NCBI GenBank assembly: GCA_016928395.1
Contig: JAFGKV010000272.1
Coordinates: 1-29,851 of the forward strand
Length of the DNA stretch: 29,851 nt
Direction of reading: 5' to 3'
Source: Candidatus Fermentibacterota bacterium
Lineage (GTDB): Bacteria > JAFGKV01
The notes under the pieces: generated by a model
Told to the model about the DNA's origin: nothing
Databases searched by the model: none
The model's input: only the letters and a program-made list of their open reading frames with translations
Program-made: the position numbers and the translations under genes
In this document: positions 93-29,712 of the stretch, one piece after another
Layout of the letters: the number at the start of each line of letters is the position of its first letter
How positions within the stretch are numbered: position 1 is the stretch's first letter

Positions 93-526
93 AGGAATAC
101 CAAAACCCGAAGCCCACGGTTGACATCATCATCGAAGTACCCGGAGGGATCGTACTGATCCGCCGAAGTCAACGGCCACTGGGGTGGGCGCTCCCCGGAG
201 GATTCGTGGACTATGGCGAGAGTCTGGAGAAGGCCGCGATCCGGGAGGCCCTTGAGGAAACGGGACTGGCGGTGACGCTGCGTCGTCAGCTGTACACGTA
301 CTCTGACCCCCTCCGGGATCCTCGCCATCACACCGTCAGCACAGTGTTCATCGCCCGGGCGGCCGGGTCGGCGAAGGCGGGGTCGGATGCCGCCGAAGCG
401 GACGTGTTCTCCCCGCCTTGGCCGTCACCCCTGGCGTTCGACCACGAGCTTATCCTGCGCGATTATCTGATGTGGAGGGATGATCCCCTCTACTCTCCCC
501 TGGTTCGGATTGCCGCAGGCTCTTGA
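89..526 (+). CDS. Nudix hydrolase (ADP-ribose pyrophosphatase-like)
   Basis: A 145-residue protein with a complete Nudix box: G38, E44, R52-E53, E56-E57 and G59 fit GX5EX7REUXEEXGU. These residues bind the divalent metal that cleaves nucleoside-diphosphate-linked substrates. The flanking strands (VDIIIEV at the N-terminus, WALPGGF before the box) and the C-terminal [11 protein letters not shown] helix resemble small ADP-ribose or general nucleotide Nudix enzymes; the substrate cannot be read from the sequence. The ATG at 89 follows AAGGAGG at 78-84, a strong but close Shine-Dalgarno site. The last 77 nt overlap the 3' end of the convergent mazG gene. Both genes encode nucleotide-pool cleaning enzymes, so their pairing may be functional, although they are on opposite strands. 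Confidence 0.93.
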
Positions 527-1756: not shown

Positions 1757-3898
1757 GTGCCCGGGAAGACCGACCTGAGGCTGCTCGGGGTGAGTGTTGT
1801 GTGCCTCGCGATAGGGGCTGCGGCATTCCTGCAATGGTATCCCCGTACGAAGGCAGCGTGGGGAATTGGCCGGGCGCCGTTGCGAGCCAAGGCCATAGCC
1901 GTAGCCGAGGCATTGGGCGACAAAGACGCGCGTTCGATACATCCCACGCTTGACGTCGCCCGCCCCCTGTGGGTCGCAAAGAGCCATACCGAGGAGCGAT
2001 CGCTGGTGGTAGCCCTGGAGCCGGACGGACGCTTGATCTACGTCCGCCGGGTCCCCGCGATGCTTCCCGCCGATGTGCCATCGGATGCCATGTGGGGATG
2101 GCTCCAGTCGCTGACGGGATCACTGCCCCCGAACGTCGGCCGCCTCACCTCATCAAGGGAAGCCGGGGACGCAATCGAGGGGTCACTTGTTCGTACCGAC
2201 GGCGTGATTCTCTCGGTGAGAGCGGCCCGCACGGCTTTGGCTACTTCAGTGGAAATCCTTCCCGACAGCGGCGTACCCCGAATGCACTCGACGGTGCGCT
2301 TTCCGCTTGTCGGTGCCATGGTGACCCTGGCGACGATGGCGGTTCTAGCCGTTCCATTCCTGTGGAATACCGTGCTCCAGGGAAGTGCGCACGCCGGCAT
2401 GGCTGCACCGCTGGGGATTGCCGCGGCAACGACGGCGCTCCTGGGGTGCGCGGCTCTGTTCCTTCCCCGAGGAGAACCGGCCGCCCCGGTCGCGGCGATT
2501 ATTGCCGTGGCTAGCGCCCTGGGGGCGGTGGTGGCGGCGGGCCAAATGCTCGTGTCCAGCCGGCCGTCACTGCGCGGGCGGTCCTTACGCCATGAGATCC
2601 GGGTGGGGTGGACTCTGGCCGGCGCATCGCTGGGCATGGCTTCCATCAGCCTGCTGTTCCCCCTGACTGCAGCGCCCACCGTGGCGGGATCTACGGTGAC
2701 GGGGTTGTCGGCGGTGGCCGCCATCCTCCTTGGCATGAGCTGCGGCGTGGGCATCGAGATGGGCGTGCGACCGATTGCCGAGACCGCCTTCTCTTCAGCA
2801 GGGTCCCCTCTTCGCCTTAGTATCGTGGGTGTGTTGACCGGTCTCATCTTGACCCCTCTCATTCCCGGCCCCTGGTTGTGGGCGTTCATCTTTGGCTCTC
2901 TGTCAGGCGTCGCCTCCGGCCTCGTCGCCCAACGAAACGGTCGTGGCGCATCGACGGTGGTTTTGGCCGTCTACGTCACCGGGCTGCTCGCACTCCCGGG
3001 GCTGGCGACCTCACTCCTCAATGGAATGTGCAGCACGGCCGCCATTCTCATTGCCTGTGTCGTGGCGCCCGCATTCGCGGCCCGCCGGGCGTCAGCAGAG
3101 GCACCGCCCTCGACCGATGATGCCTTACCCGCGTATATCCAGGAGATCCGTGGGGAAGCCCTCCACACTCACCTTGCCACTCTGGCCGCAGATCTACAGA
3201 CCCCTTTCTGCGTCACCGCTGCAGCTCAGGAACGCGGTATCGAGGTAGGTTGCACTCTGCGACGAGCCCATCCTCCGGCCGCCGACATCTGCCGGATCAT
3301 CGGCATTACCCGCGACAGGCTCGGGGTAGTCATGGGAGAAGTCCCCGAAGGTGGCGTCCACGGCGCCATTCAGGCTTCGATCTTGTCTGTGGCGGTACTG
3401 TCCGCTGCAGCCGACACCAAGAACTTGGCATCGTTGCCTGCAGAGGTGGAACGGCTCATGGGTGCCACGTGGAACGGCGGCGGTGAGGCCGTGACCATGA
3501 GCTATGGTCTCTTGGACCGCCGCTCCAAGACCTTCTCCTTTGTCAGAGCAGGCCATCAGCCCGTGCTCCTCTACCGTGCCTTGGTAGGAAGATTCGAACG
3601 AGTCTTCCCTCCGGGTGATCCACTGCGAACCACGCCGTCGGACGAAAAACGGTCATTTGATGTGGCGACAATCCAGCTCGTGACGAAAGACCTCCTGATC
3701 TTCTTCTCGGATGGCCTCCTCACTGTGCCTGTTGCTGGCGGGCTCTACTCGCCTGATCATCTCGAGAAGCTCGTGCGGGACAATCCGGGCGCATCATGTG
3801 AGGAGATGGCGAAAGCTCTTGATGCAGAGCTGGCCAAGCTCCTGGGAACCAAGCCCCCGGCAGATGACATTGTGGTGTTGTTCCTCAGGGGCAAATGA
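1757..3898 (+). CDS. Membrane protein with SpoIIE/PP2C-like phosphatase domain
   Basis: A 713-residue protein starting at GTG 1757. It has a membrane segment near residues 8-27, a probable extracytoplasmic part (about 40-180), a stretch of hydrophobic segments (about 185-445) and a C-terminal SpoIIE-type domain from about residue 460. In partner switching such phosphatases dephosphorylate the STAS protein. Retained elements are D510 (in PAADI), the SDGLL motif with D652 and the ADDIVVL motif with D704. The glycine-rich metal loop reads MGEVPEGGVHGA, so the usual Asp of GDVSGHG is E528, and the second Asp of the DxxD motif is R513. Activity may therefore be altered. The gene ends in TGA sharing ATGA with the kinase gene, which implies coupled translation. 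Confidence 0.88.
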   Translation: MPGKTDLRLLGVSVVCLAIGAAAFLQWYPRTKAAWGIGRAPLRAKAIAVAEALGDKDARSIHPTLDVARPLWVAKSHTEERSLVVALEPDGRLIYVRRVPAMLPADVPSDAMWGWLQSLTGSLPPNVGRLTSSREAGDAIEGSLVRTDGVILSVRAARTALATSVEILPDSGVPRMHSTVRFPLVGAMVTLATMAVLAVPFLWNTVLQGSAHAGMAAPLGIAAATTALLGCAALFLPRGEPAAPVAAIIAVASALGAVVAAGQMLVSSRPSLRGRSLRHEIRVGWTLAGASLGMASISLLFPLTAAPTVAGSTVTGLSAVAAILLGMSCGVGIEMGVRPIAETAFSSAGSPLRLSIVGVLTGLILTPLIPGPWLWAFIFGSLSGVASGLVAQRNGRGASTVVLAVYVTGLLALPGLATSLLNGMCSTAAILIACVVAPAFAARRASAEAPPSTDDALPAYIQEIRGEALHTHLATLAADLQTPFCVTAAAQERGIEVGCTLRRAHPPAADICRIIGITRDRLGVVMGEVPEGGVHGAIQASILSVAVLSAAADTKNLASLPAEVERLMGATWNGGGEAVTMSYGLLDRRSKTFSFVRAGHQPVLLYRALVGRFERVFPPGDPLRTTPSDEKRSFDVATIQLVTKDLLIFFSDGLLTVPVAGGLYSPDHLEKLVRDNPGASCEEMAKALDAELAKLLGTKPPADDIVVLFLRGK

Positions 3899-4326
3899 CC
3901 GGGGAATCCCGCAACCGCACGGTAACCGTTGAGTTGCCCAGCGACATATCCCTGCTGGAGTTAGCTCATTGCCTTTCCAAAGAGATTCCTCACGCTCTGG
4001 GTGTGCCCGAGGACGACGCCGAGGCCATGGGGAACGCCGCTCTAGAAGCGGTGGGCAATGCCATGCGTCACGGCAACCGCTTGGATCCATCGATTCCGGT
4101 GGCCCTGTGCTTCACGGTTGAGGGAGCATGGATCACGGTAAGCGTGAGCGATCGCGGAGAGGGCTTTGATCCTGCCAAGCTCTGTGATCCCACGACCACG
4201 GAGAATCTCCTGAAGACGTGCGGGCGTGGTCTCTTTCTCATGCGCGCGTTTACCGACTCCGTAAGCGTCCGCCCACGGCCAGGGGGTGGCACCACGGTCA
4301 CTCTCCGCAAGGCCTTCACCGCGTAG
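3895..4326 (+). CDS. RsbW/SpoIIAB-like anti-sigma factor kinase (HATPase)
   Basis: A 143-residue GHKL ATPase-fold protein, the size of stand-alone anti-sigma serine kinases. The N box is NAALEAVGNAMRHGN, with E51 and N55; the G1 box is DRGEGFDP (D86, G88, G90); the G2 box is GRGLFLMRAF (from G110). Proteins of this type bind a sigma factor or another partner and phosphorylate the STAS antagonist on its conserved Ser. The ATG at 3895 overlaps the stop of the SpoIIE-like gene (ATGA). The STAS gene, phosphatase and kinase being in one operon strongly supports the role; the regulated target is unknown, because no sigma factor is in the window. The gene ends 3 bp before the flippase gene. Confidence 0.92.
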   Translation: MTGESRNRTVTVELPSDISLLELAHCLSKEIPHALGVPEDDAEAMGNAALEAVGNAMRHGNRLDPSIPVALCFTVEGAWITVSVSDRGEGFDPAKLCDPTTTENLLKTCGRGLFLMRAFTDSVSVRPRPGGGTTVTLRKAFTA

Positions 4327-4329
4327 CCG

Positions 4330-5868
4330 GTGAGCCTCCTCCCGGCGAACCCTGAATCTGGCTGCCCGGCCGGCACGTTGGCGGGCAAGGGCGTCTGCAA
4401 TGTTCTGAACACCCTTGTGGTGGTACTGCGATCATTGGTGCTTTCGGTAGTGGTGGCTCGGGCGCTGGGGCCGTCACTCCAGGGTGTCTACTCGGTCTTG
4501 CTCTACGTCATCCAGGTGGGGGTCCAGGTAGTAAGCCTTGGGTTCCCCAGCACTCTGGTGCGTTTCATGGCCCAACGACGCGCCGACGGCGACGATGCCG
4601 GCGCCGGCGCGGTGCTGGGATACGTGATTCGCCGGGAGCTATTCCTGGGTGCCTTCGCCACGATGGCCTGCGCCATGTTGGCCCGACCTTTGGCGGCGCA
4701 CGTGGCTCAGGGTGCCCCGGCATGGCTGTTTCTCATTGCGGCTCTCGCCATCCTGCCCGACAGTCTGACCCTGGCGTACGAGGCGGGATTCGAAGGCATG
4801 CTGGCCTACGAAACCCTTCTCCGCATTAACCTGGCCCTGGTGCCTGCCTCGCTGGTGACAGCCATTGCGATACTCGGGCTGGGCGGAGGAATCACGGAGC
4901 TATTGATCCTGAAAGTGTTTCTTGCGGTGATCCGGGTGATCCTGTACCGCCGCATCCTTGGCCGCCGTGTGCCCCGCGGCGGTGTCCTGACACAGCAGAC
5001 CTCGACCATGATGGGGCGATACACCAGGAGCCTTTCATTCATCTTCCTCTGCGATGCGGTCGTGTGGCAGCGCTCAGAGGTGTTCTTCCTGGGGATCTTC
5101 TGCTCCCCAGCCTCCATAGCCTTCTACGACATTGCCTACCAAGTGGTTGGCACGACTATGCGCGTACTCCCGGAGAAGCTGACGGATATCCTATTCCCTG
5201 TGATGTCGGGCCTTGAGCAGCGAGGCCAACGGGAGCGCACTGCCGCGCTCTACGGGCGTAGTGTCCGTTTGCTCTTCGCGATGACGTTGGGTATCGCAGT
5301 AGCCCTGGCGGCGTATTCGCCCCTGCTGATACGTCTCCTCTACGGAAGCGCCTTCGCACCTGCGGCCAGTGTGATCCGCGTGCTCTGTGCGGCGGCTCCT
5401 GTGGTAATCGTGGCGAGAGCAACGGCGTATGTGCTCTATGCGGCGGGCTGGCAGGATTTCAACGTTCGCCTCGCCGGCGCGGCGGCCGTAGTGAATATCG
5501 CGCTATCGCTGATACTCATCCCGCGCAATTGCGTCATCGGGGCGGCGTTGGCGAATAGCGTGACGCAGTCCGTGTCGGTATGCGCTCTGGTGACCTACGT
5601 CCTTAGGCGTGCCCAGATCAGCCTCCCCTGGCAGGCCATGGCCCAGACGGTCACTGCTGGCATCGCCCAGGCTGCGGTTATGGCGGGGGTCCTCAACCTG
5701 CTCCACGGATGGACGGCGCTAACCACGGGAACCGCAGCCGGTCTGTTGGTCTACGGAGCCGTGCTGGTGAAGATGGGCGTGATCGAGAAGGAAGAGCGGC
5801 AGGGAGCAACGAGATGGGTCCGCGGCCGCTCTCGTCGTGGGAAGCAGAGTGCCGGGGGGCGGAATTGA
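4330..5868 (+). CDS. Polysaccharide flippase (Wzx/MOP superfamily)
   Basis: A 512-residue, highly hydrophobic protein with many predicted membrane segments. The N-terminal pattern KGVCNVLNTLVVVLRSLVL followed by VVARALGPSLQGVYSVLL is typical of polysaccharide transporters of the PST/MOP group, which flip lipid-linked glycans across the inner membrane. It starts at GTG 4330, 3 bp after the kinase stop, with no clear ribosome-binding site, so it probably depends on coupling with the upstream genes. Being last in a partner-switch operon suggests that the switch may influence envelope or exopolysaccharide export; that is inference. The C-terminus is a short Arg/Lys-rich tail whose last 19 nt overlap tRNA-Phe on the other strand. 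Confidence 0.88.
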   Translation: MSLLPANPESGCPAGTLAGKGVCNVLNTLVVVLRSLVLSVVVARALGPSLQGVYSVLLYVIQVGVQVVSLGFPSTLVRFMAQRRADGDDAGAGAVLGYVIRRELFLGAFATMACAMLARPLAAHVAQGAPAWLFLIAALAILPDSLTLAYEAGFEGMLAYETLLRINLALVPASLVTAIAILGLGGGITELLILKVFLAVIRVILYRRILGRRVPRGGVLTQQTSTMMGRYTRSLSFIFLCDAVVWQRSEVFFLGIFCSPASIAFYDIAYQVVGTTMRVLPEKLTDILFPVMSGLEQRGQRERTAALYGRSVRLLFAMTLGIAVALAAYSPLLIRLLYGSAFAPAASVIRVLCAAAPVVIVARATAYVLYAAGWQDFNVRLAGAAAVVNIALSLILIPRNCVIGAALANSVTQSVSVCALVTYVLRRAQISLPWQAMAQTVTAGIAQAAVMAGVLNLLHGWTALTTGTAAGLLVYGAVLVKMGVIEKEERQGATRWVRGRSRRGKQSAGGRN

Positions 5869-5922
5869 ACCGCCGACACACGGATTTTCAGTCCGCTGCT
5901 CTACCTGCTGAGCTACCCCGGC
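5850..5922 (-). tRNA. tRNA-Phe (GAA)
   Basis: A 73-nt cloverleaf on the minus strand. The acceptor stem GCCGGGG (5916-5922) pairs with CCCCGGC (5851-5857), with discriminator A at 5850. The D arm contains GCTCAGCAGGTAGAGC; the anticodon stem GCGGA/TCCGT encloses loop CTGAAAA with anticodon GAA at 5887-5889; the T arm is GGCGG TTCAATT CCGCC. The CCA end is not encoded (CTC follows), so it must be added after transcription. The 3' end overlaps the last 19 nt of the flippase gene in antisense. It lies just downstream of mltG on the same strand. Confidence 0.97.
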
Positions 5923-5972
5923 ATTCAGATATGAGGCTAATTTGTCCTAAGATATCGCATTGACCTGTAGCG

Positions 5973-6974
5973 TCAAGACCCGTCCGATCGAGCAGCTCGG
6001 GATTCGCGGATTGCCGCCCGATGCGCCGAGAAGGTCTCACTGAACTCGTGGGAGCCGTCTCCGCGAGCGACAAAAAAGAGGGCCCGACAGGAGCGGTCAG
6101 GGTGCAAGACTGCTTTTATGCTACCGAGGCCCGGAGAGCAGATTGGACCTGGGGGTAGGCCTCGATTGAGATAGGTATTGTACGGCGAGGGCCGGCGCAG
6201 ATCCGCGTAGGTCAATCTCCTGCCGACGAGACCCAGGCCATACGCGACGGTCGGGTCTGCATCCAGCTTCATGCCAATGGCCATGCGATTTAGATACACC
6301 GCAGCCACCATCGGCCGTTCGCGGGGGAGGCTCGTCTCCTTCTCAACGATAGAGGCCAAAGTAAGAATCTCATGAAAGGAGAGCCGGGTCAATCCCTCAT
6401 CCCAGTCGATACTCCCCAGCATCGCCCGAAGCCGGGCCACCATCACAGAAGCGATTCGATCCGCCCGGGCATTGAGGCGGAACGAGTAGGTGTCCGGGAA
6501 GAGGTAACCCTCCAGAGACGCGGCCGAGAATCCCAATGTTGCTATGAACGAGTCACTGGTGCAGATACGCATGAACTGCGCGGAATCAACGCCCACGGAA
6601 GCCTGCAGCGCAGATGCAATTTCCACCATCATGATCCCTTCAGGCAGCGTCACGCTGGTAGCGATGACCTGTCCCCGAGCGAGATGATCGAGGATCTCCT
6701 GGGGCGACATGGCCGAGCTGAGAAGGTATGGCCCCGCCTGGATGACTCGGTCCTTACGGCTGAGCCGCCCCCAGAGGCGCAGCACATCGGGGTGACGAAT
6801 CAAGCCGCTGTCGGCCAGCATGGCTGCGGCTTCAGAGAGCGTGACGCCGTTGGAGAGATCGAACCGCACCCACCGTTCGGCCCCTGCAGGGGTAGTCATG
6901 ATACGCCACACCATTGCCACGCTGATAACGGCCACGAGGAGAGTGCTTGCTGCGATGAGAGTCATCACCCTCAT
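5973..6974 (-). CDS. mltG: Endolytic murein transglycosylase MltG
   Basis: A 333-residue protein of the YceG/MltG family, which cuts nascent glycan strands in the periplasm and is anchored in the inner membrane. An N-terminal membrane segment covers about residues 5-24. A LysM-like part (about 36-108) is followed by the catalytic domain with [11 protein letters not shown] (155-165) and LASIVEKET, where E211 is the likely catalytic Glu. Then come the family blocks [26 protein letters not shown] and [11 protein letters not shown]. Its ATG overlaps the ruvX stop (ATGA), so translation is probably coupled; mltG and ruvX (yqgF) are neighbours in many bacteria. The length is normal. Confidence 0.97.
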
Positions 6975-24533: not shown

Positions 24534-27365
24534 ATGAGAGTCACCGTCCTCTTCATTCTCTTACCCCTCCTGTCCCTGCACGCATCGGCCTTTAACCGGT
24601 GCGGAACGTACCTCTTCCATGAGGAGGCGGTACGCCTCGACAGCCTCTGGGGCAAGGGGCCTGCTGCCTGGGCCAAGGCCGGCGCGACGGTGCCCAGGGC
24701 CGAGTACTTTGAGGGCGATACCAAGACCTTCTACTCGTCCATCGGCAGTCGGTGGCTGCCTGCGACCCTGCGGCTGAAGGGAACGAACTGCTACTTGTGG
24801 GCGGAGGATGCCCTGTGGGGCTCCACCATCACCATGGGCAAACTCCAGGTGATGCGCACCATGTTCGACGATTCCACCGCCGCGGATCCCTCCAGGGGCG
24901 CCTACGCGATCGACGTCGAGGCCTTCGGATCCCCTCCCGATATCGACAATGATCACCGCATTCACATTCTCGTGCTCAATATCGGCCCCGCAGGTGTCGG
25001 CGGCTACTTCCGACCCGCCAACGAGTATCCGTCGTCTGTGGAGCCCACGAGCAATGAGTTGGACATGTTCTACTACGATGACGACCTCGACCCTCGGGCA
25101 TCCGCGTTCGCCGCTGCCGTTCCCGCCCATGAGTTCCAGCACATGATCAACTGGAATCAAGACGCCAATGAGGATCTGTGGATCAACGAGGGCTGTTCCG
25201 GCCTGGCGGAACTCCTGGTGGGCTACCTGAATGCCGGGGGGTGGGCAGCCACGTGGGCACAGCATACTGACGGTTCGCTTCTAAACTGGGAACCCAATGA
25301 AGGTGACTATTTCGCCACAGCATTGTTCGCCATCTACCTGTACGACCATTTCGGAGGCACCACGTTCACGCGACAGCTCCTGGCCGAGCAGGCCAATGGA
25401 ATCGCGGGAATACAGAATGCACTGGCCCATTTCGGTTTCGGCATGGACTTCCGCGAACTGTTCGCGCGTTGGAGCCTGGCCAACTTGCTGGACAACCCCT
25501 CACCGTCCTTCTACGGCGGAGTGTACGGGTACGAGATAATCAACCTTCCGGTCTCAATCGCCTTCGCCCAGGATCACGGCCTCTATCCGGTACCCTCGAC
25601 ATCGGAGACCGTGGCGGGCTGGGGAGTCGACTACGTCCGGCTGCGAGACGGAGGCCTCATGCAGTGGGCCGCCACCGGCCCCAATGACCAGTGGCGCCGT
25701 CTGGACGTGCTCCACGTTCGCTACCCGTTCTCTGATGTCGCGATGCAGGTTGTGGACCATGGGAGCATAGTAGATACTCTCATCGTATCACTGGATCGGT
25801 TCGGCGCCGACTGGGATCCCGAGGTGATGGTTGTGCTCAACACCTCGCCAACCGTCGTCACCCTGACCTATCAGGAGTTTACTCTCGTCCACCCCGATGC
25901 CGCTCCCACGGTGGCAGGCTGGCCTGCGACAGGCTTAGGAATGCTGGCCAGCAGCCCGGTGGTCTGCGACAATCTCGTGGCGGTGAGCGACCGCAATGGC
26001 GCGGTGCATCTGCTGTCCTCATCGGCATCGTCTCGGCCTGGATGGCCGATCCAACTCCCTGATCAGCTCTGGGCCACACCCACCATGGCGGATCTAGACG
26101 GCAACGGGTTGGCGGAGATCATCGTTGGAACCCGGGGAGCCATGCTTCACGTCTTCAATCAGGATGGAACCTCCCTTCCGGGATGGCCTGTCTCCTTTGA
26201 CGGCTCGACCTATGGCCTGCCCAGCCCCGTGGCAGCCGCTGACCTGGATGGCGACGGACTCCTCGAACTGATCGCCGCCAGCTTCAGTGGCGAGCTTGCC
26301 TGCCTCAAGGCCGACGGCAGCCCCCTGGCGGGATGGCCACTACAGGTGGGTTCGCCCCTGTACTCGTCACCGGCGCTAGGTGATCTGGATGGTGATGGCC
26401 TCCCGGATATCGCGGTAGCCTCCATGGACAGCATGCTCCACGTCTTCGATACCGCAGGCCAGGAAAGACCAGGCTGGCCGAAGCCCTTGTCGGCACGATC
26501 GTGGAGTGGCCCAGTCATCGGGATGCCGGTCAACGGCATCCCCGCGGTGCTGGTGTCGGATGAAGCGGGTATGGTCCATGCCTTTGACTCCTCGGGCACT
26601 CCGCTTCCGGGGTGGCCGGTGTCATTGGGCAGCCGGATTCAGTCCCCTATGGCCCTGGCCGACCTGAACGGTGACGGGGCCTCGGAAGTCATGGCCGCGA
26701 CGCTTTCGGGCGTTGTGCATGTACTCAGCGGCACAGGCGTGAACCTGCCGGGATGGCCGCGCGCCACGGGAGGCGAGATCTGGGGCAGCCCGGTGCTGGC
26801 CGACATCGACGGCGACGATATTCAGGAGGTAGCGGTTGCCTCGAAGCAGGGCAAGATCCTGATCTGCAATGCCGATGGTTCCTGTGCCGATGGCTGGCCT
26901 CTTCTGCTGGGTTCCCACCTGCAGGCGGGGCCGGCGGTGGCCGACCTTGACGGCGACGGCAGCGCCGAAATCGTGCTGCCCGGCCTCACGGGAATCATGC
27001 AGGCGTGGGCTGTGAATGTCCCCTTCGCCGGCGCAGACTGGCCTCAGACCGGGCGCAATGCCGCCCATACAAGCAGCCTGCTGGATCCCGACGCCGCGGG
27101 CAAAGATGCGGCCCTGCCCCGCCGCCTTGTCGTCTCCGTCTATCCCGTGCCGGCCGATAGGGAGATCATGGCCAATGTGCTCAACGTGACGGGATCGGTC
27201 AGGTTCGAGCTGTATGCCCTGAGCGGCAGGCGTCTCATGTCGCGGCTCATGGAGGTTCACGGGCCTGTGACTCTGGACACGGCTGGCCTGGGTTCCGGAA
27301 CCTACATGCTGAGAGTCCGCAACGGGAAAGCGGCCGCCTCTATCCCCGTCATTGTCGTGAACTAG
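24534..27365 (+). CDS. Secreted metalloprotease with FG-GAP-like propeller and sorting-like C-terminal domain
   Basis: A 943-residue exported protein with a signal peptide (about 1-19). The N-terminal part carries a gluzincin-type zinc motif, HEFQH (199-203), with WINEG placing E219 15 residues after the second His, resembling M30/M1-type peptidases. Residues about 462-830 form eight tandem units of about 46 residues, most with GWP at the start and the DLDGDG/DIDGDD calcium loop followed by EI/EV. The last ~75 residues (VSVYPVPADREI to the end, with GSGTYMLRVRNG) resemble the type A sorting domain of type IX secretion or FlgD-like domains. The ATG at 24534 has AAGGAG 12 nt upstream. Substrate unknown; it probably acts at or beyond the outer membrane. 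Confidence 0.9.
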   Translation: MRVTVLFILLPLLSLHASAFNRCGTYLFHEEAVRLDSLWGKGPAAWAKAGATVPRAEYFEGDTKTFYSSIGSRWLPATLRLKGTNCYLWAEDALWGSTITMGKLQVMRTMFDDSTAADPSRGAYAIDVEAFGSPPDIDNDHRIHILVLNIGPAGVGGYFRPANEYPSSVEPTSNELDMFYYDDDLDPRASAFAAAVPAHEFQHMINWNQDANEDLWINEGCSGLAELLVGYLNAGGWAATWAQHTDGSLLNWEPNEGDYFATALFAIYLYDHFGGTTFTRQLLAEQANGIAGIQNALAHFGFGMDFRELFARWSLANLLDNPSPSFYGGVYGYEIINLPVSIAFAQDHGLYPVPSTSETVAGWGVDYVRLRDGGLMQWAATGPNDQWRRLDVLHVRYPFSDVAMQVVDHGSIVDTLIVSLDRFGADWDPEVMVVLNTSPTVVTLTYQEFTLVHPDAAPTVAGWPATGLGMLASSPVVCDNLVAVSDRNGAVHLLSSSASSRPGWPIQLPDQLWATPTMADLDGNGLAEIIVGTRGAMLHVFNQDGTSLPGWPVSFDGSTYGLPSPVAAADLDGDGLLELIAASFSGELACLKADGSPLAGWPLQVGSPLYSSPALGDLDGDGLPDIAVASMDSMLHVFDTAGQERPGWPKPLSARSWSGPVIGMPVNGIPAVLVSDEAGMVHAFDSSGTPLPGWPVSLGSRIQSPMALADLNGDGASEVMAATLSGVVHVLSGTGVNLPGWPRATGGEIWGSPVLADIDGDDIQEVAVASKQGKILICNADGSCADGWPLLLGSHLQAGPAVADLDGDGSAEIVLPGLTGIMQAWAVNVPFAGADWPQTGRNAAHTSSLLDPDAAGKDAALPRRLVVSVYPVPADREIMANVLNVTGSVRFELYALSGRRLMSRLMEVHGPVTLDTAGLGSGTYMLRVRNGKAAASIPVIVVN
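25917..27032 (+). repeat. Eight tandem GWP/DxDGDG coding repeats
   Basis: Units begin at residues about 462, 503, 549, 598, 645, 691, 738 and 785 by their (A/P/D)GWP step and average about 139 bp. They differ enough to be old propeller blades and not recent DNA duplications. The fifth lacks the calcium loop (GMPVNG). Confidence 0.8.
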
Positions 27366-27429: not shown

Positions 27430-29712
27430 GTGAACGGAACTGATCCCGTGACATGGTCTGACTCCCAACCCTTGCGCGTGCCCGCCCGCACGGTCGAGGA
27501 TCACCATGACGAGTTGCTGGCGGCCGTACCCTCCCTCACCGCCAAGGGCGCGGCAGTCCGGCTGTTGCTCCACGCGCGCTGGCTGCCGCCGGTAGAAGCC
27601 TCTCCCCAGACACTCTTCTATCACGTAGACACCGTGTCGCGGTTGGTCGATCTTGTCCTGGCGCCGGCTCCGTTCACCGGGCACATGGGGCTCCTCAAAG
27701 ATCTGCGTGACCTTCTGGCGCCCACACTCAATGGACGGGTCATGGCACAGGTACCGCGGCTCTGGGCAGCATGGCAGCGGGTCTGCGCGCTCAGAATCCT
27801 GGAACTGGCGATCCGCGGCCGACAGGAGGAATGCGCCACGGCGGCTGCCGCCTTGGGATGTCAGAACCACGGCGATATCGATATTGACGGCCTGCTGGCG
27901 GCATTGCTGGGTTCATGGCGGGATGGGCGCTGTGAGATTCCGTGGCATTTCCGCGACCCGGCGATCCTTCCCCAAGGTTCGGTACTCACCGTGCTGGTGG
28001 ATGGCCCTGATATCCCTTCTCAGTACCGAGAGGCGTACCTGGCCAGAGTGTCGGTCATGGTGACCGTGAAGGGCACGCGCCAGCCCACACCTCCCACGGT
28101 ACGGGCGCGGGATGCGCTGGGCGAAGATGTGCCTTTAGGGGAGGAATTGAAGGATCTGGTCCGCGAGGCCGTTGAGCAGGCCGTAGCCTTTCTCGGCCCA
28201 TCTGCCCGTGCCCGATGGCACAGGGCCCATCTCACCGTGGAACTGGACATTCGCTGCCCCTTCACCGTGACGGCCGTCACTGGCCGCTCTATCCTCCTGC
28301 CACTGACCCTAGTGATTGCACGGTGCCTGGGCGAGGAGTTCAACCTCTCGGCTGCGGTCCATCCGGATCCGGGCATCGTGTGGACCGGTGATCTCGATGA
28401 CCATGGGGCCGTGGGCAGCGTGCAGGATCTCGATCTCAAGCTAGAGCGCGTCATGGCATCCAGAGCCCGCGGATTCGCCTTTCCCGCGGCGGACCGAGGC
28501 TTTGTGGACGGCGCCAGTCCTTTCGTGCGGTCCGAGCCCCTGGCACTTATCCCCCTGACCCATCTCCAAGATGCCGGTACCTCCGCCGGGGTTGCCATCA
28601 GGAGCCGATCGGTGCCAACTCGGGCGATCAGCGGTCTGCGGCGGCGGGCCCGCCCTTTGGGCCTGGCCGGCACCGTGGCTGTGGGACTGCTTCTGGCCGG
28701 CCTCGCTTTGGTGATCGGCAACCTGGCCACTCTGCTTGACACTGCCCCGGCAACAATCCGGTTCGCGGGCGATCACCATCGCATCGAAGTGCTCAATTCC
28801 CGGGAGCGAACCCTGCGGCGCATCCCCATCGACTCGACCAGTACACGGCATCCCCTGCTGGTCGAAATCGACGGTAGAGGAGAACCCGAGATCCTCTTCG
28901 GCAGCCAGGCCAACGACTCGCCGCCGGGGATGCTCTACTGTCTCGACAGTCGTGGCCGGGAACTGTGGCGATTCCAGGGAGGATTCCGGCCGGGGGAGTT
29001 CTGCCCGGAAGGCATGGAAAGCAGATTCTGTTGCGATGCCGCCTATGTCCATGACCTTGATCACGATGGAAAGCGGGAGGTGGTGGCGGTGTTCCACCAT
29101 ACCCCTTTTTACCCGACCCAGGTGGCTCTGCTCGACAGCGAGGGGCGATACGAGTCAAGCTTCTGGCATGCGGGGCACCTGAGCGCAAATGCGTTCTGGG
29201 TCGAGGGCAGCCAAGTCTTGTTCTTTGATATCGATGCCGACGGCTATGACGAGATCCTTCTGACTGGCGCAAACAATGCCCTGAACAGTGCGGTTCTCGT
29301 GGTGCTTGATCCCCGATCCATCCACGGCCACGGGCCAACCCGTTCTTCCGAGGGCTCGTTCACGTGGCAGAGCTATGTCGTGTTCTCTCGGTCTGAGGAG
29401 TTACACACGGCCATGGGATCCGATCGCCTCCACGGGCGGGATGTACGGCTGCAGCCCTGGGCCGGGGCCTCGCGCCTGAGGCTCTCGGTGTGGGCCCACA
29501 TCTCCGGCCGCGACCGGATCGGCGCTCTGACTCTCTTTCTAGATCCCGACTTCTCCGTCATCGACATCTATGCGGCCGATGAGTTCATCCAGTGGATGGC
29601 CGAAACCCATGCCGCCGGGCGCCTGAGCTTCCGTTTCGATTCCCCCGAGTTCCAGGCTCAGATGCGCCAAGTGAAGGTCATTTCGGGACCTCCGGCGCTG
29701 CTTTACCCCTGA
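27430..29712 (+). CDS. Membrane protein: Lon-like (S16) protease domain, one membrane segment, FG-GAP-like outside domain
   Basis: A 760-residue protein. Residues 1-205 are helical and not recognised. Residues about 220-370 resemble the Lon proteolytic domain: TVTAVTGRSILLPLTLVIA, with S287 where Lon has its catalytic Ser, IVWTGDLDDHGAVGSVQDL, and LDLKLERV, with K337 at the place of the catalytic Lys (50 residues later; 43 in E. coli Lon, with an insertion here). No AAA+ ATPase is present. A membrane segment (about 410-436) follows RRRARP, so the Lon-like part should be cytoplasmic. The C-terminal part has three calcium-loop motifs: VEIDGRGEPEILFG (478), HDLDHDGKREVVAV (541) and FDIDADGYDEILLTG (599). 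The GTG at 27430 lacks a Shine-Dalgarno site. Function unknown. Confidence 0.82.
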   Translation: MNGTDPVTWSDSQPLRVPARTVEDHHDELLAAVPSLTAKGAAVRLLLHARWLPPVEASPQTLFYHVDTVSRLVDLVLAPAPFTGHMGLLKDLRDLLAPTLNGRVMAQVPRLWAAWQRVCALRILELAIRGRQEECATAAAALGCQNHGDIDIDGLLAALLGSWRDGRCEIPWHFRDPAILPQGSVLTVLVDGPDIPSQYREAYLARVSVMVTVKGTRQPTPPTVRARDALGEDVPLGEELKDLVREAVEQAVAFLGPSARARWHRAHLTVELDIRCPFTVTAVTGRSILLPLTLVIARCLGEEFNLSAAVHPDPGIVWTGDLDDHGAVGSVQDLDLKLERVMASRARGFAFPAADRGFVDGASPFVRSEPLALIPLTHLQDAGTSAGVAIRSRSVPTRAISGLRRRARPLGLAGTVAVGLLLAGLALVIGNLATLLDTAPATIRFAGDHHRIEVLNSRERTLRRIPIDSTSTRHPLLVEIDGRGEPEILFGSQANDSPPGMLYCLDSRGRELWRFQGGFRPGEFCPEGMESRFCCDAAYVHDLDHDGKREVVAVFHHTPFYPTQVALLDSEGRYESSFWHAGHLSANAFWVEGSQVLFFDIDADGYDEILLTGANNALNSAVLVVLDPRSIHGHGPTRSSEGSFTWQSYVVFSRSEELHTAMGSDRLHGRDVRLQPWAGASRLRLSVWAHISGRDRIGALTLFLDPDFSVIDIYAADEFIQWMAETHAAGRLSFRFDSPEFQAQMRQVKVISGPPALLYP

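What the first reader, a model, noticed from the sequence alone, without database searches (positions are those of the whole stretch)
27430..29712. ATPase-free Lon-like protease domain fused through a membrane segment to an outside FG-GAP-like domain
Seen: TGRS with S287 and LDLKL with K337 occupy the places of the Lon Ser-Lys dyad, with the intervening TGDLDDHGAVGSV matching Lon's TGE(x)4G(x)V block; a hydrophobic segment at about 410-436 follows a basic stretch; three DxDxDGxxE loops follow. Known: S16 domains are usually fused to AAA+ (Lon) or PDZ domains. Inference: an outside binding or calcium-sensing domain could control a cytoplasmic protease, forming a transmembrane signalling protease. 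This is the best candidate for an undescribed system here.
Basis: partly seen in the sequence, partly recalled or inferred. Interest (0 to 1): 0.78.

Follow-up and report, generated by a model that had tools for sequence, protein, structure and literature searches.

The report
Membrane Lon-like protease with outside propeller
Some little-known bacteria carry several copies of a membrane protein that joins, through one membrane segment, a probable Lon-type protein-cutting domain inside the cell to a propeller-shaped domain outside it, a layout I found no description of and which could let an outside signal switch on cutting inside.

Summary
The finding holds up. ORF 27430-29712 (+) is a real gene, one of at least four divergent paralogs in its genome, with relatives in both other held genomes of its phylum (NCBI names: Ca. 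Eisenbacteria, Ca. Fermentibacteria). S287 and K337 are invariant in all seven members that cover them, although these are only 35-47% identical. Profile-profile comparison places both exactly on the Lon catalytic Ser and Lys (P=8e-9; score 62 against a best of 22 in 100 column-shuffled controls). Foldseek on a low-confidence model of a relative's domain ranks Lon, BrxL and RadA Lon domains first. A single membrane segment (409-439) with a strong positive-inside bias puts the Lon-like domain in the cytoplasm and an FG-GAP propeller outside. Pfam and NCBIfam do not recognise the Lon-like domain. One paralog sits in an operon with an ECF sigma factor and a zf-HC2-like protein, echoing CalpL/CalpT/CalpS, where an AAA-free Lon cuts an anti-sigma factor. 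The other copies have no such neighbour, and proteolysis, ligand and substrate are untested. Verdict: new variant of a known kind (AAA-free Lon-like proteases), lineage-restricted, probably regulatory.

The parts
27430..29712 (+). Gene for the Lon-like / membrane / propeller protein (760 aa, GTG start)
   Evidence: ORF and codon-position GC; four relatives in the same genome
27430..27924 (+). N-terminal helical domain (residues about 1-165), no known family
   Evidence: AlphaFold2 helices, pLDDT about 60-80 over residues 21-140; no Pfam match; conserved in relatives from about residue 17-20
27967..28599 (+). Lon-like (S16-fold) domain, residues about 180-390
   Evidence: hhalign to Lon P=7.8e-9; Foldseek Lon/BrxL/RadA domains on the model of a relative's domain; profile hits to Lon ORFs in other genomes
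28288..28290 (+). S287, equivalent of the Lon catalytic Ser (GRS)
   Evidence: invariant in 7 of 7 members; aligned to Lon/LonB-like Ser by hhalign
28381..28422 (+). WTGDLDDHGAVGSV, equivalent of Lon TGE(x)4GxV
   Evidence: W318, T319, G320, D323, G326, V331 invariant
28438..28440 (+). K337, equivalent of the Lon catalytic Lys
   Evidence: invariant in 7 of 7; aligned to the Lys of Lon 'EK'
28615..28662 (+). Basic juxtamembrane stretch (PTRAISGLRRRARPLG)
   Evidence: 6 basic and 0 acidic residues in the 20 positions before the membrane segment; 6-7 against 0-1 in all seven members
28654..28746 (+). Single membrane segment, residues 409-439
   Evidence: best hydropathy window, Kyte-Doolittle mean 2.36, with a counterpart in all members; long helix 395-436 in the model
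28747..29709 (+). Outside FG-GAP / integrin-alpha-like beta-propeller, residues 440-760
   Evidence: Foldseek to BtuG-type and integrin alpha propellers E 3e-4 to 1e-3; VIA-align Z up to 12.8; Pfam FG-GAP_3 in 7 of 8 members
29053..29079 (+). Canonical DxDxDG loop 1 (DLDHDGKRE, residues 542-550)
29227..29253 (+). Canonical DxDxDG loop 2 (DIDADGYDE, residues 600-608)
24534..27365 (+). Neighbouring gene 64 nt upstream: secreted HExxH metallopeptidase-like FG-GAP protein with T9SS tail; probably not functionally linked
   Evidence: its G001 orthologue (74%) has no Lon-like neighbour

Best explanation
A single-pass inner-membrane protein, N-terminus inside. The cytoplasmic half is a helical domain followed by an AAA-free Lon-like Ser-Lys (S287/K337) protease domain; the outside half is an FG-GAP (integrin-alpha-like) propeller. 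It most likely works as a regulated, substrate-selective protease rather than a bulk degrader: it has no ATPase to unfold substrates, so something bound by the propeller, or clustering driven by it, brings the Lon-like domains together and lets them cut a specific cytoplasmic regulator. For the C170 paralog the candidate substrate is the zf-HC2-like (anti-sigma-like) protein encoded immediately upstream, which would release the ECF sigma factor. Shown by computation: domain homology, dyad conservation, membrane segment with charge bias, propeller, paralogy, and one sigma/anti-sigma linkage. Inferred: catalysis, signal gating, and the substrate.
For: S287 and K337 are invariant across seven members at 35-47% identity to the window protein. 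hhalign to a Lon set: P=7.8e-9, probability 95.8%, 139 columns, Ser on Ser and Lys on Lys; real score 61.9 against a null maximum of 21.7 in 100 column shuffles. A profile built only from this family hits ORFs carrying the Lon GPSAG/GDSAS motif in six other genomes at E 5e-7 to 6e-4. Pfam Lon_C ranks the C170 paralog at E=0.037, just below the recognised Lon, RadA and ComM matches. Foldseek on the domain-only model of the relative L036: 49 of the top 50 rows are Lon, BrxL or RadA Lon-like domains, best E=7e-5; on the full-length window model Lon domains also appear (3wu4 E=0.011, prob 0.99) beside integrin and BtuG propellers. Membrane segment with 6-7 basic residues before it and 1-3 after it, in all members. 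C170 paralog: ECF sigma 6020-6658, zf-HC2-like 5055-5975 and Lon-like 2744-5068 on one strand, the last two overlapping by 14 nt. Precedent: CalpL, a Lon that cuts the anti-sigma factor CalpT bound to the ECF sigma factor CalpS (PMC11417357).
Against: No biochemical evidence. The Ser motif is GRS[IL]LLP, not GPSAG or GDSAS: bulky residues follow the Ser and the HxH ... PKDGPSAG context is missing. The domain model has pLDDT of only 51, so dyad geometry could not be checked. Pfam Lon_C does not reach its cut-off for any member. The sigma/zf-HC2 linkage occurs for one copy of those whose flanks are held; in G002 the homologous ECF/zf-HC2 pair has no Lon-like ORF in the 1.1 kb that follows, and in G001 the contig ends there. 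No ligand for the propeller is known.
Confidence: 0.5

Rival explanations
1. A pseudoenzyme: the Lon-like domain keeps the fold but serves as an oligomerising or binding scaffold, as in RadA and ComM, and the propeller protein signals or adheres without proteolysis.
For: Non-canonical GRS[IL]LLP around the Ser and no HxH/PKDGPSAG context; RadA and BrxL Lon-like domains are also among the fold matches.
Against: Both dyad residues and the TG(D/E) block are invariant across deep paralogs; the RadA and ComM sequences read here have no Ser at that place.
Confidence: 0.25
2. A constitutive membrane-tethered quality-control protease, cutting misfolded or membrane proteins without signal gating; the propeller is a structural or envelope-binding anchor.
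For: Most copies have no regulatory neighbour; YlbL is a membrane Lon-like protease that acts on a membrane protein, with protease activity required in vivo (PMC6051672).
Against: No unfoldase; several divergent propellers in one genome suggest different ligands or roles; a sigma-factor operon for one copy.
Confidence: 0.18
3. Not a Lon-like domain but another ribosomal-protein-S5-domain-2-like fold (GHMP-kinase-like), the Ser/Lys match being accidental.
For: VIA-align gives mevalonate-pathway GHMP enzymes Z of 5-6, close to Lon at 5.9-6.3 and BrxL at 7.1, on a weak model.
Against: Profile comparison pairs Ser and Lys exactly with Lon at P=8e-9; the family profile retrieves Lon ORFs; 49 of the top 50 Foldseek rows are Lon-type.
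Confidence: 0.04

Closest known systems
CalpL (SAVED-Lon) of the CalpL/T/S system (PMC11417357)
   Same: Lon-type protease domain with a sensor domain in place of an unfoldase; the Calp system also pairs it with an anti-sigma and an ECF sigma factor, as the C170 paralog may be
   Different: CalpL has the Lon domain first and a C-terminal SAVED sensor of the internal messenger cA4; here a membrane segment and an outside propeller. The window copy has no sigma/anti-sigma neighbour
YlbL/DdcP of Bacillus subtilis (TM-PDZ-Lon; PMC6051672)
   Same: AAA-free, membrane-anchored, Ser-Lys Lon-like domain
   Different: YlbL has an N-terminal membrane segment, a PDZ domain and a Lon domain thought to lie outside the cell; here the Lon-like domain is predicted inside and no PDZ domain is found
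LonC (MtaLonC; PMC3391209)
   Same: Lon-type protease without ATP-powered unfolding
   Different: LonC is a soluble hexamer with a degenerate ATPase module and a canonical Lon domain; here no such module, plus a membrane segment and propeller
LonB-like AAA+ proteases (GDSAS type)
   Same: Best sequence match of the single Lon subgroups tested: hhalign P=1.4e-6, against 7.2e-5 for LonA
   Different: They have an AAA+ part; S-to-K spacing is 43 residues there and 50 here
FG-GAP / integrin-alpha-type and BtuG-type propellers
   Same: Propeller fold and DxDxDG loops
   Different: No known FG-GAP protein found that carries a Lon-like domain; a 2008 survey reports trypsin-FG-GAP but not Lon-FG-GAP (PMC2605481)

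Membership tests
Lon-like (peptidase S16-fold) proteolytic domain | S16 fold | tested here: met
   Foldseek on the L036 domain model: best 4ypm E=7.3e-5, 49 of the top 50 Lon-type; hhalign P=7.8e-9. Caveat: model pLDDT 51 and superposition poor (TM about 0.3)
Lon-like (peptidase S16-fold) proteolytic domain | Catalytic Ser (G-x-S) and Lys on the helix after TG(E/D) | tested here: met
   S287 and K337 invariant in 7 of 7 and aligned to the Lon dyad by hhalign
Lon-like (peptidase S16-fold) proteolytic domain | Score over Pfam Lon_C curated cut-off (a library threshold, not a biological feature) | tested here: not met
   only one of 8 members matches, E=0.092, below cut-off; C170 paralog 14.9 bits against 21.1
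Lon-like (peptidase S16-fold) proteolytic domain | Proteolytic activity | not testable with these tools
   needs purified protein, wild type against S287A
Lon proteases proper (LonA/LonB) | AAA+ ATPase domain in the same chain | tested here: not met
   no AAA match in Pfam for the window protein or the other family members
Lon proteases proper (LonA/LonB) | GPSAG (LonA) or GDSAS (LonB-like) around the Ser | tested here: not met
   GRS[IL]LLP in all members
FG-GAP / integrin-like propeller | FG-GAP repeats and propeller fold | tested here: met
   FG-GAP_3 in 7 of 8 members, best E=1.1e-8 (window copy E=6.5e-5, just under cut-off); integrin and BtuG propellers in Foldseek
CalpL/CalpT/CalpS | SAVED/CARF sensor domain on the Lon protein | tested here: not met
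   no such Pfam match in any member; C-terminal half is a propeller
CalpL/CalpT/CalpS | ECF sigma and anti-sigma genes beside the Lon gene | tested here: inconclusive
   met for the C170 paralog only; absent beside the window copy
YlbL/DdcP | PDZ domain | tested here: not met
   no PDZ match in Pfam
zf-HC2 anti-sigma factor (C170 neighbour) | H-x3-C-x2-C zinc motif, zf-HC2 match | tested here: inconclusive
   HFSECQYC present, no Pfam hit for this copy; homologs in G001 (E=3.8e-7) and G002 (E=0.0043) do match zf-HC2

The most novel reading that the evidence does not exclude
A one-protein transmembrane receptor-protease: an integrin-like propeller outside the inner membrane gates an AAA-free Lon-like Ser-Lys protease inside, which cuts cytoplasmic anti-sigma or other regulators. 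That would be a one-step alternative to regulated intramembrane proteolysis, expanded into several parallel receptors in one lineage.
Probability: 0.2. Interest if true: 0.85.

Novelty: new variant of a known kind. Interest (0 to 1): 0.6.

Why it matters
Lon-type protease domains without an unfoldase are turning up as regulated cutters wired to sensors (SAVED in CalpL, CARF, PDZ in YlbL). This family would add the first I know of that is wired through a membrane segment to an outside propeller, with several paralogs in one genome, and it is invisible to Pfam and NCBIfam as a protease. If it cuts, it offers a direct route from an envelope signal to cytoplasmic proteolysis, and the C170 operon gives an immediate substrate to test.

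Tried and rejected
phmmer of the window protein and hmmsearch of the family profile against PDB sequences gave nothing significant (best human Lon E=0.92): too distant for sequence alone. AlphaFold2 with four sequences gave weak models (pLDDT 61 full length, 51 domain), so S287-K337 geometry was not measured; own-genome paralogs could not be added to the fold job under its rule. VIA-align on the domain model was indecisive (Lon, BrxL and GHMP enzymes tied at Z 5-7). An operon with the upstream metallopeptidase-like gene was rejected: its G001 orthologue has no Lon-like neighbour. Conserved linkage to the ECF/zf-HC2 pair was tested and found in one of three genomes, absent in G002, cut off in G001. 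No relatives outside the phylum: 386 genomes across the domain, 195 genomes of one other phylum, and a motif scan of 84,980 species genomes returned only the same clade, Lon-type proteins and one Lon-like NACHT protein. Calcium sensing was not adopted: DxDxDG loops bind calcium structurally in integrins (own knowledge) and one of the three loops is degenerate here. The minus-strand ORFs over the gene were not adopted: the plus-strand gene is conserved in relatives and has a coding-like GC pattern. No promoter was found by the consensus scan, and its terminator hits were no more than in shuffles.

Full report
Observation. ORF 27430-29712 (+, 760 aa, GTG) is as described. Pfam and NCBIfam recognise only weak propeller/FG-GAP matches in it. 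The genome (G000, 4.79 Mb, 343 contigs; the window is all of contig C341) holds further members: C182 copy A, C170, a copy cut at the start of C209, and the start of a gene at the end of C182. Because G001 contig C256 shows the same tandem pair followed by a polysaccharide deacetylase and TsaB, the C182 end and C209 start are probably one tandem pair split by the assembly. That makes at least four copies. G001 has three and G002 one complete copy. These three genomes are all that are held for the phylum; the public records of two of them are named Ca. Eisenbacteria Prado127 and Ca. Fermentibacteria CSMAG_2897. In a tree, the two tandem copies each pair with their G001 counterpart (100/100), while the window copy, C170, C460 and C111 are separate deep branches.

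Lon-like domain. In seven members spanning the region, at 35-47% identity to the window protein, the invariant residues include G285-R286-S287, L289-L290-P291, W318-T319-G320, D323, G326, V331, K337, R340-V341 and S344-R345. In the N-terminal 440 residues only two of five Lys and two of twenty Ser are invariant; S287 and K337 are among them. hhalign without any hint aligned S287 with the Lon catalytic Ser and K337 with the Lon catalytic Lys against both LonA and LonB-like sets. With larger sets P was 7.2e-5 (LonA), 1.4e-6 (LonB-like) and 7.8e-9 (both); real scores of 38, 48 and 62 compare with maxima of 23, 22 and 22 from 100 column-shuffled controls each. The S-to-K distance is 43 residues in Lon and 50 here, the extra residues lying in the loop before the TG(D/E) strand. 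The family profile, built without Lon, retrieved outside the family four matches in 386 genomes and three in 195 genomes of another phylum; six of these loci carry the Lon GPSAG or GDSAS motif and the seventh encodes a Lon-like domain in a NACHT protein. Pfam Lon_C gives the C170 paralog E=0.037, below cut-off but next after the recognised Lon-domain proteins.

Fold. AlphaFold2 with four sequences gave pLDDT 60.6 for the full protein and 50.9 for the domain of the relative L036, which was chosen as first row. Foldseek on the domain model listed Lon proteolytic domains first (4ypm E=7.3e-5), and 49 of the top 50 rows are Lon, BrxL or RadA Lon-like domains. The full-length window model gave BtuG-type and integrin alpha propellers first, and Lon domains further down; VIA-align gave propellers Z up to 12.8 over 438-719. 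The models are too weak to measure the dyad.

Topology. Every member has one strong hydrophobic segment (window 409-439) with 6-7 basic and 0-1 acidic residues in the 20 before it, and 1-3 basic and 2-4 acidic after it. By the positive-inside rule the Lon-like half is cytoplasmic and the propeller outside. There is no N-terminal hydrophobic segment. Two DxDxDG loops are canonical and the third is degenerate.

Context. The window copy follows a secreted HExxH metallopeptidase-like FG-GAP protein with a T9SS tail by 64 nt, but the G001 orthologue of that gene has no Lon-like neighbour. The C170 copy lies directly after an ECF sigma factor (Sigma70_r4_2 E=3e-9) and a protein with an HxxxCxxC motif whose homologs match zf-HC2; the zf-HC2-like and Lon-like genes overlap by 14 nt. 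Homologous ECF/zf-HC2 pairs exist in G001 and G002; G002 shows no Lon-like gene in the 1.1 kb downstream and the G001 contig ends. So the link is real for one copy but not general.

Mechanism. Without an unfoldase a Lon-type domain is expected to cut accessible sites in particular proteins. CalpL shows such a domain, gated by a sensor and by oligomerisation, cutting an anti-sigma factor that holds an ECF sigma factor (PMC11417357). YlbL and LonC show AAA-free membrane and soluble forms (PMC6051672, PMC3391209). I propose that the propeller binds an outside ligand or surface, clusters the protein, and so switches on cytoplasmic cutting of a regulator, in the C170 case the zf-HC2-like protein. 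Homology, dyad conservation and predicted topology rest on computation; catalysis, gating and substrate are inference. A pseudoenzyme scaffold is the main rival because of the unusual residues after the Ser.

Novelty. A 2008 survey of S16 architectures lists AAA+, Sigma54-activator, Mg-chelatase, DnaB and PDZ partners, but no FG-GAP partner for Lon (PMC2605481); later work adds CARF and SAVED (PMC9704534). My literature searches found no Lon-like/FG-GAP fusion, within an open-access library only. I rate it a new variant of a known kind.

Noticed in passing
L099:1219-6507 (-) (G510:C63): A 1762-aa protein with a Lon-like domain (RGPSWMAAVVL ... ITGELDADGLVIPVGDIPDKV), a NACHT-like NTPase and HEAT repeats, near trypsin-like and subtilase-like genes: a likely conflict-system Lon-like protein; found by this family's profile at E=1.1e-4.
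   Followed up: partly
window 24534-27365: Secreted protein with an HEFQH metallopeptidase motif, FG-GAP propeller repeats and a T9SS-type C-terminal tail; orthologue in G001 (74%), more distant relatives in G002.
   Followed up: partly
L053:6020-6658, 5055-5975 (-); L084; L083: ECF sigma factor / zf-HC2-like protein pairs with a large C-terminal domain on the zf-HC2-like protein, in all three genomes of the phylum; beside a Lon-like gene only in G000.
   Followed up: partly
L053:7323-7904 (-): Zeta-toxin-like kinase gene (Pfam E=7e-8) with a small gene after it, near the C170 Lon-like operon; possible toxin-antitoxin pair.
   Followed up: no
L033 (G001:C418): RadA reading frame whose end runs into unrelated sequence after the start of its Lon-like domain; may be an assembly or insertion junction.
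   Followed up: no
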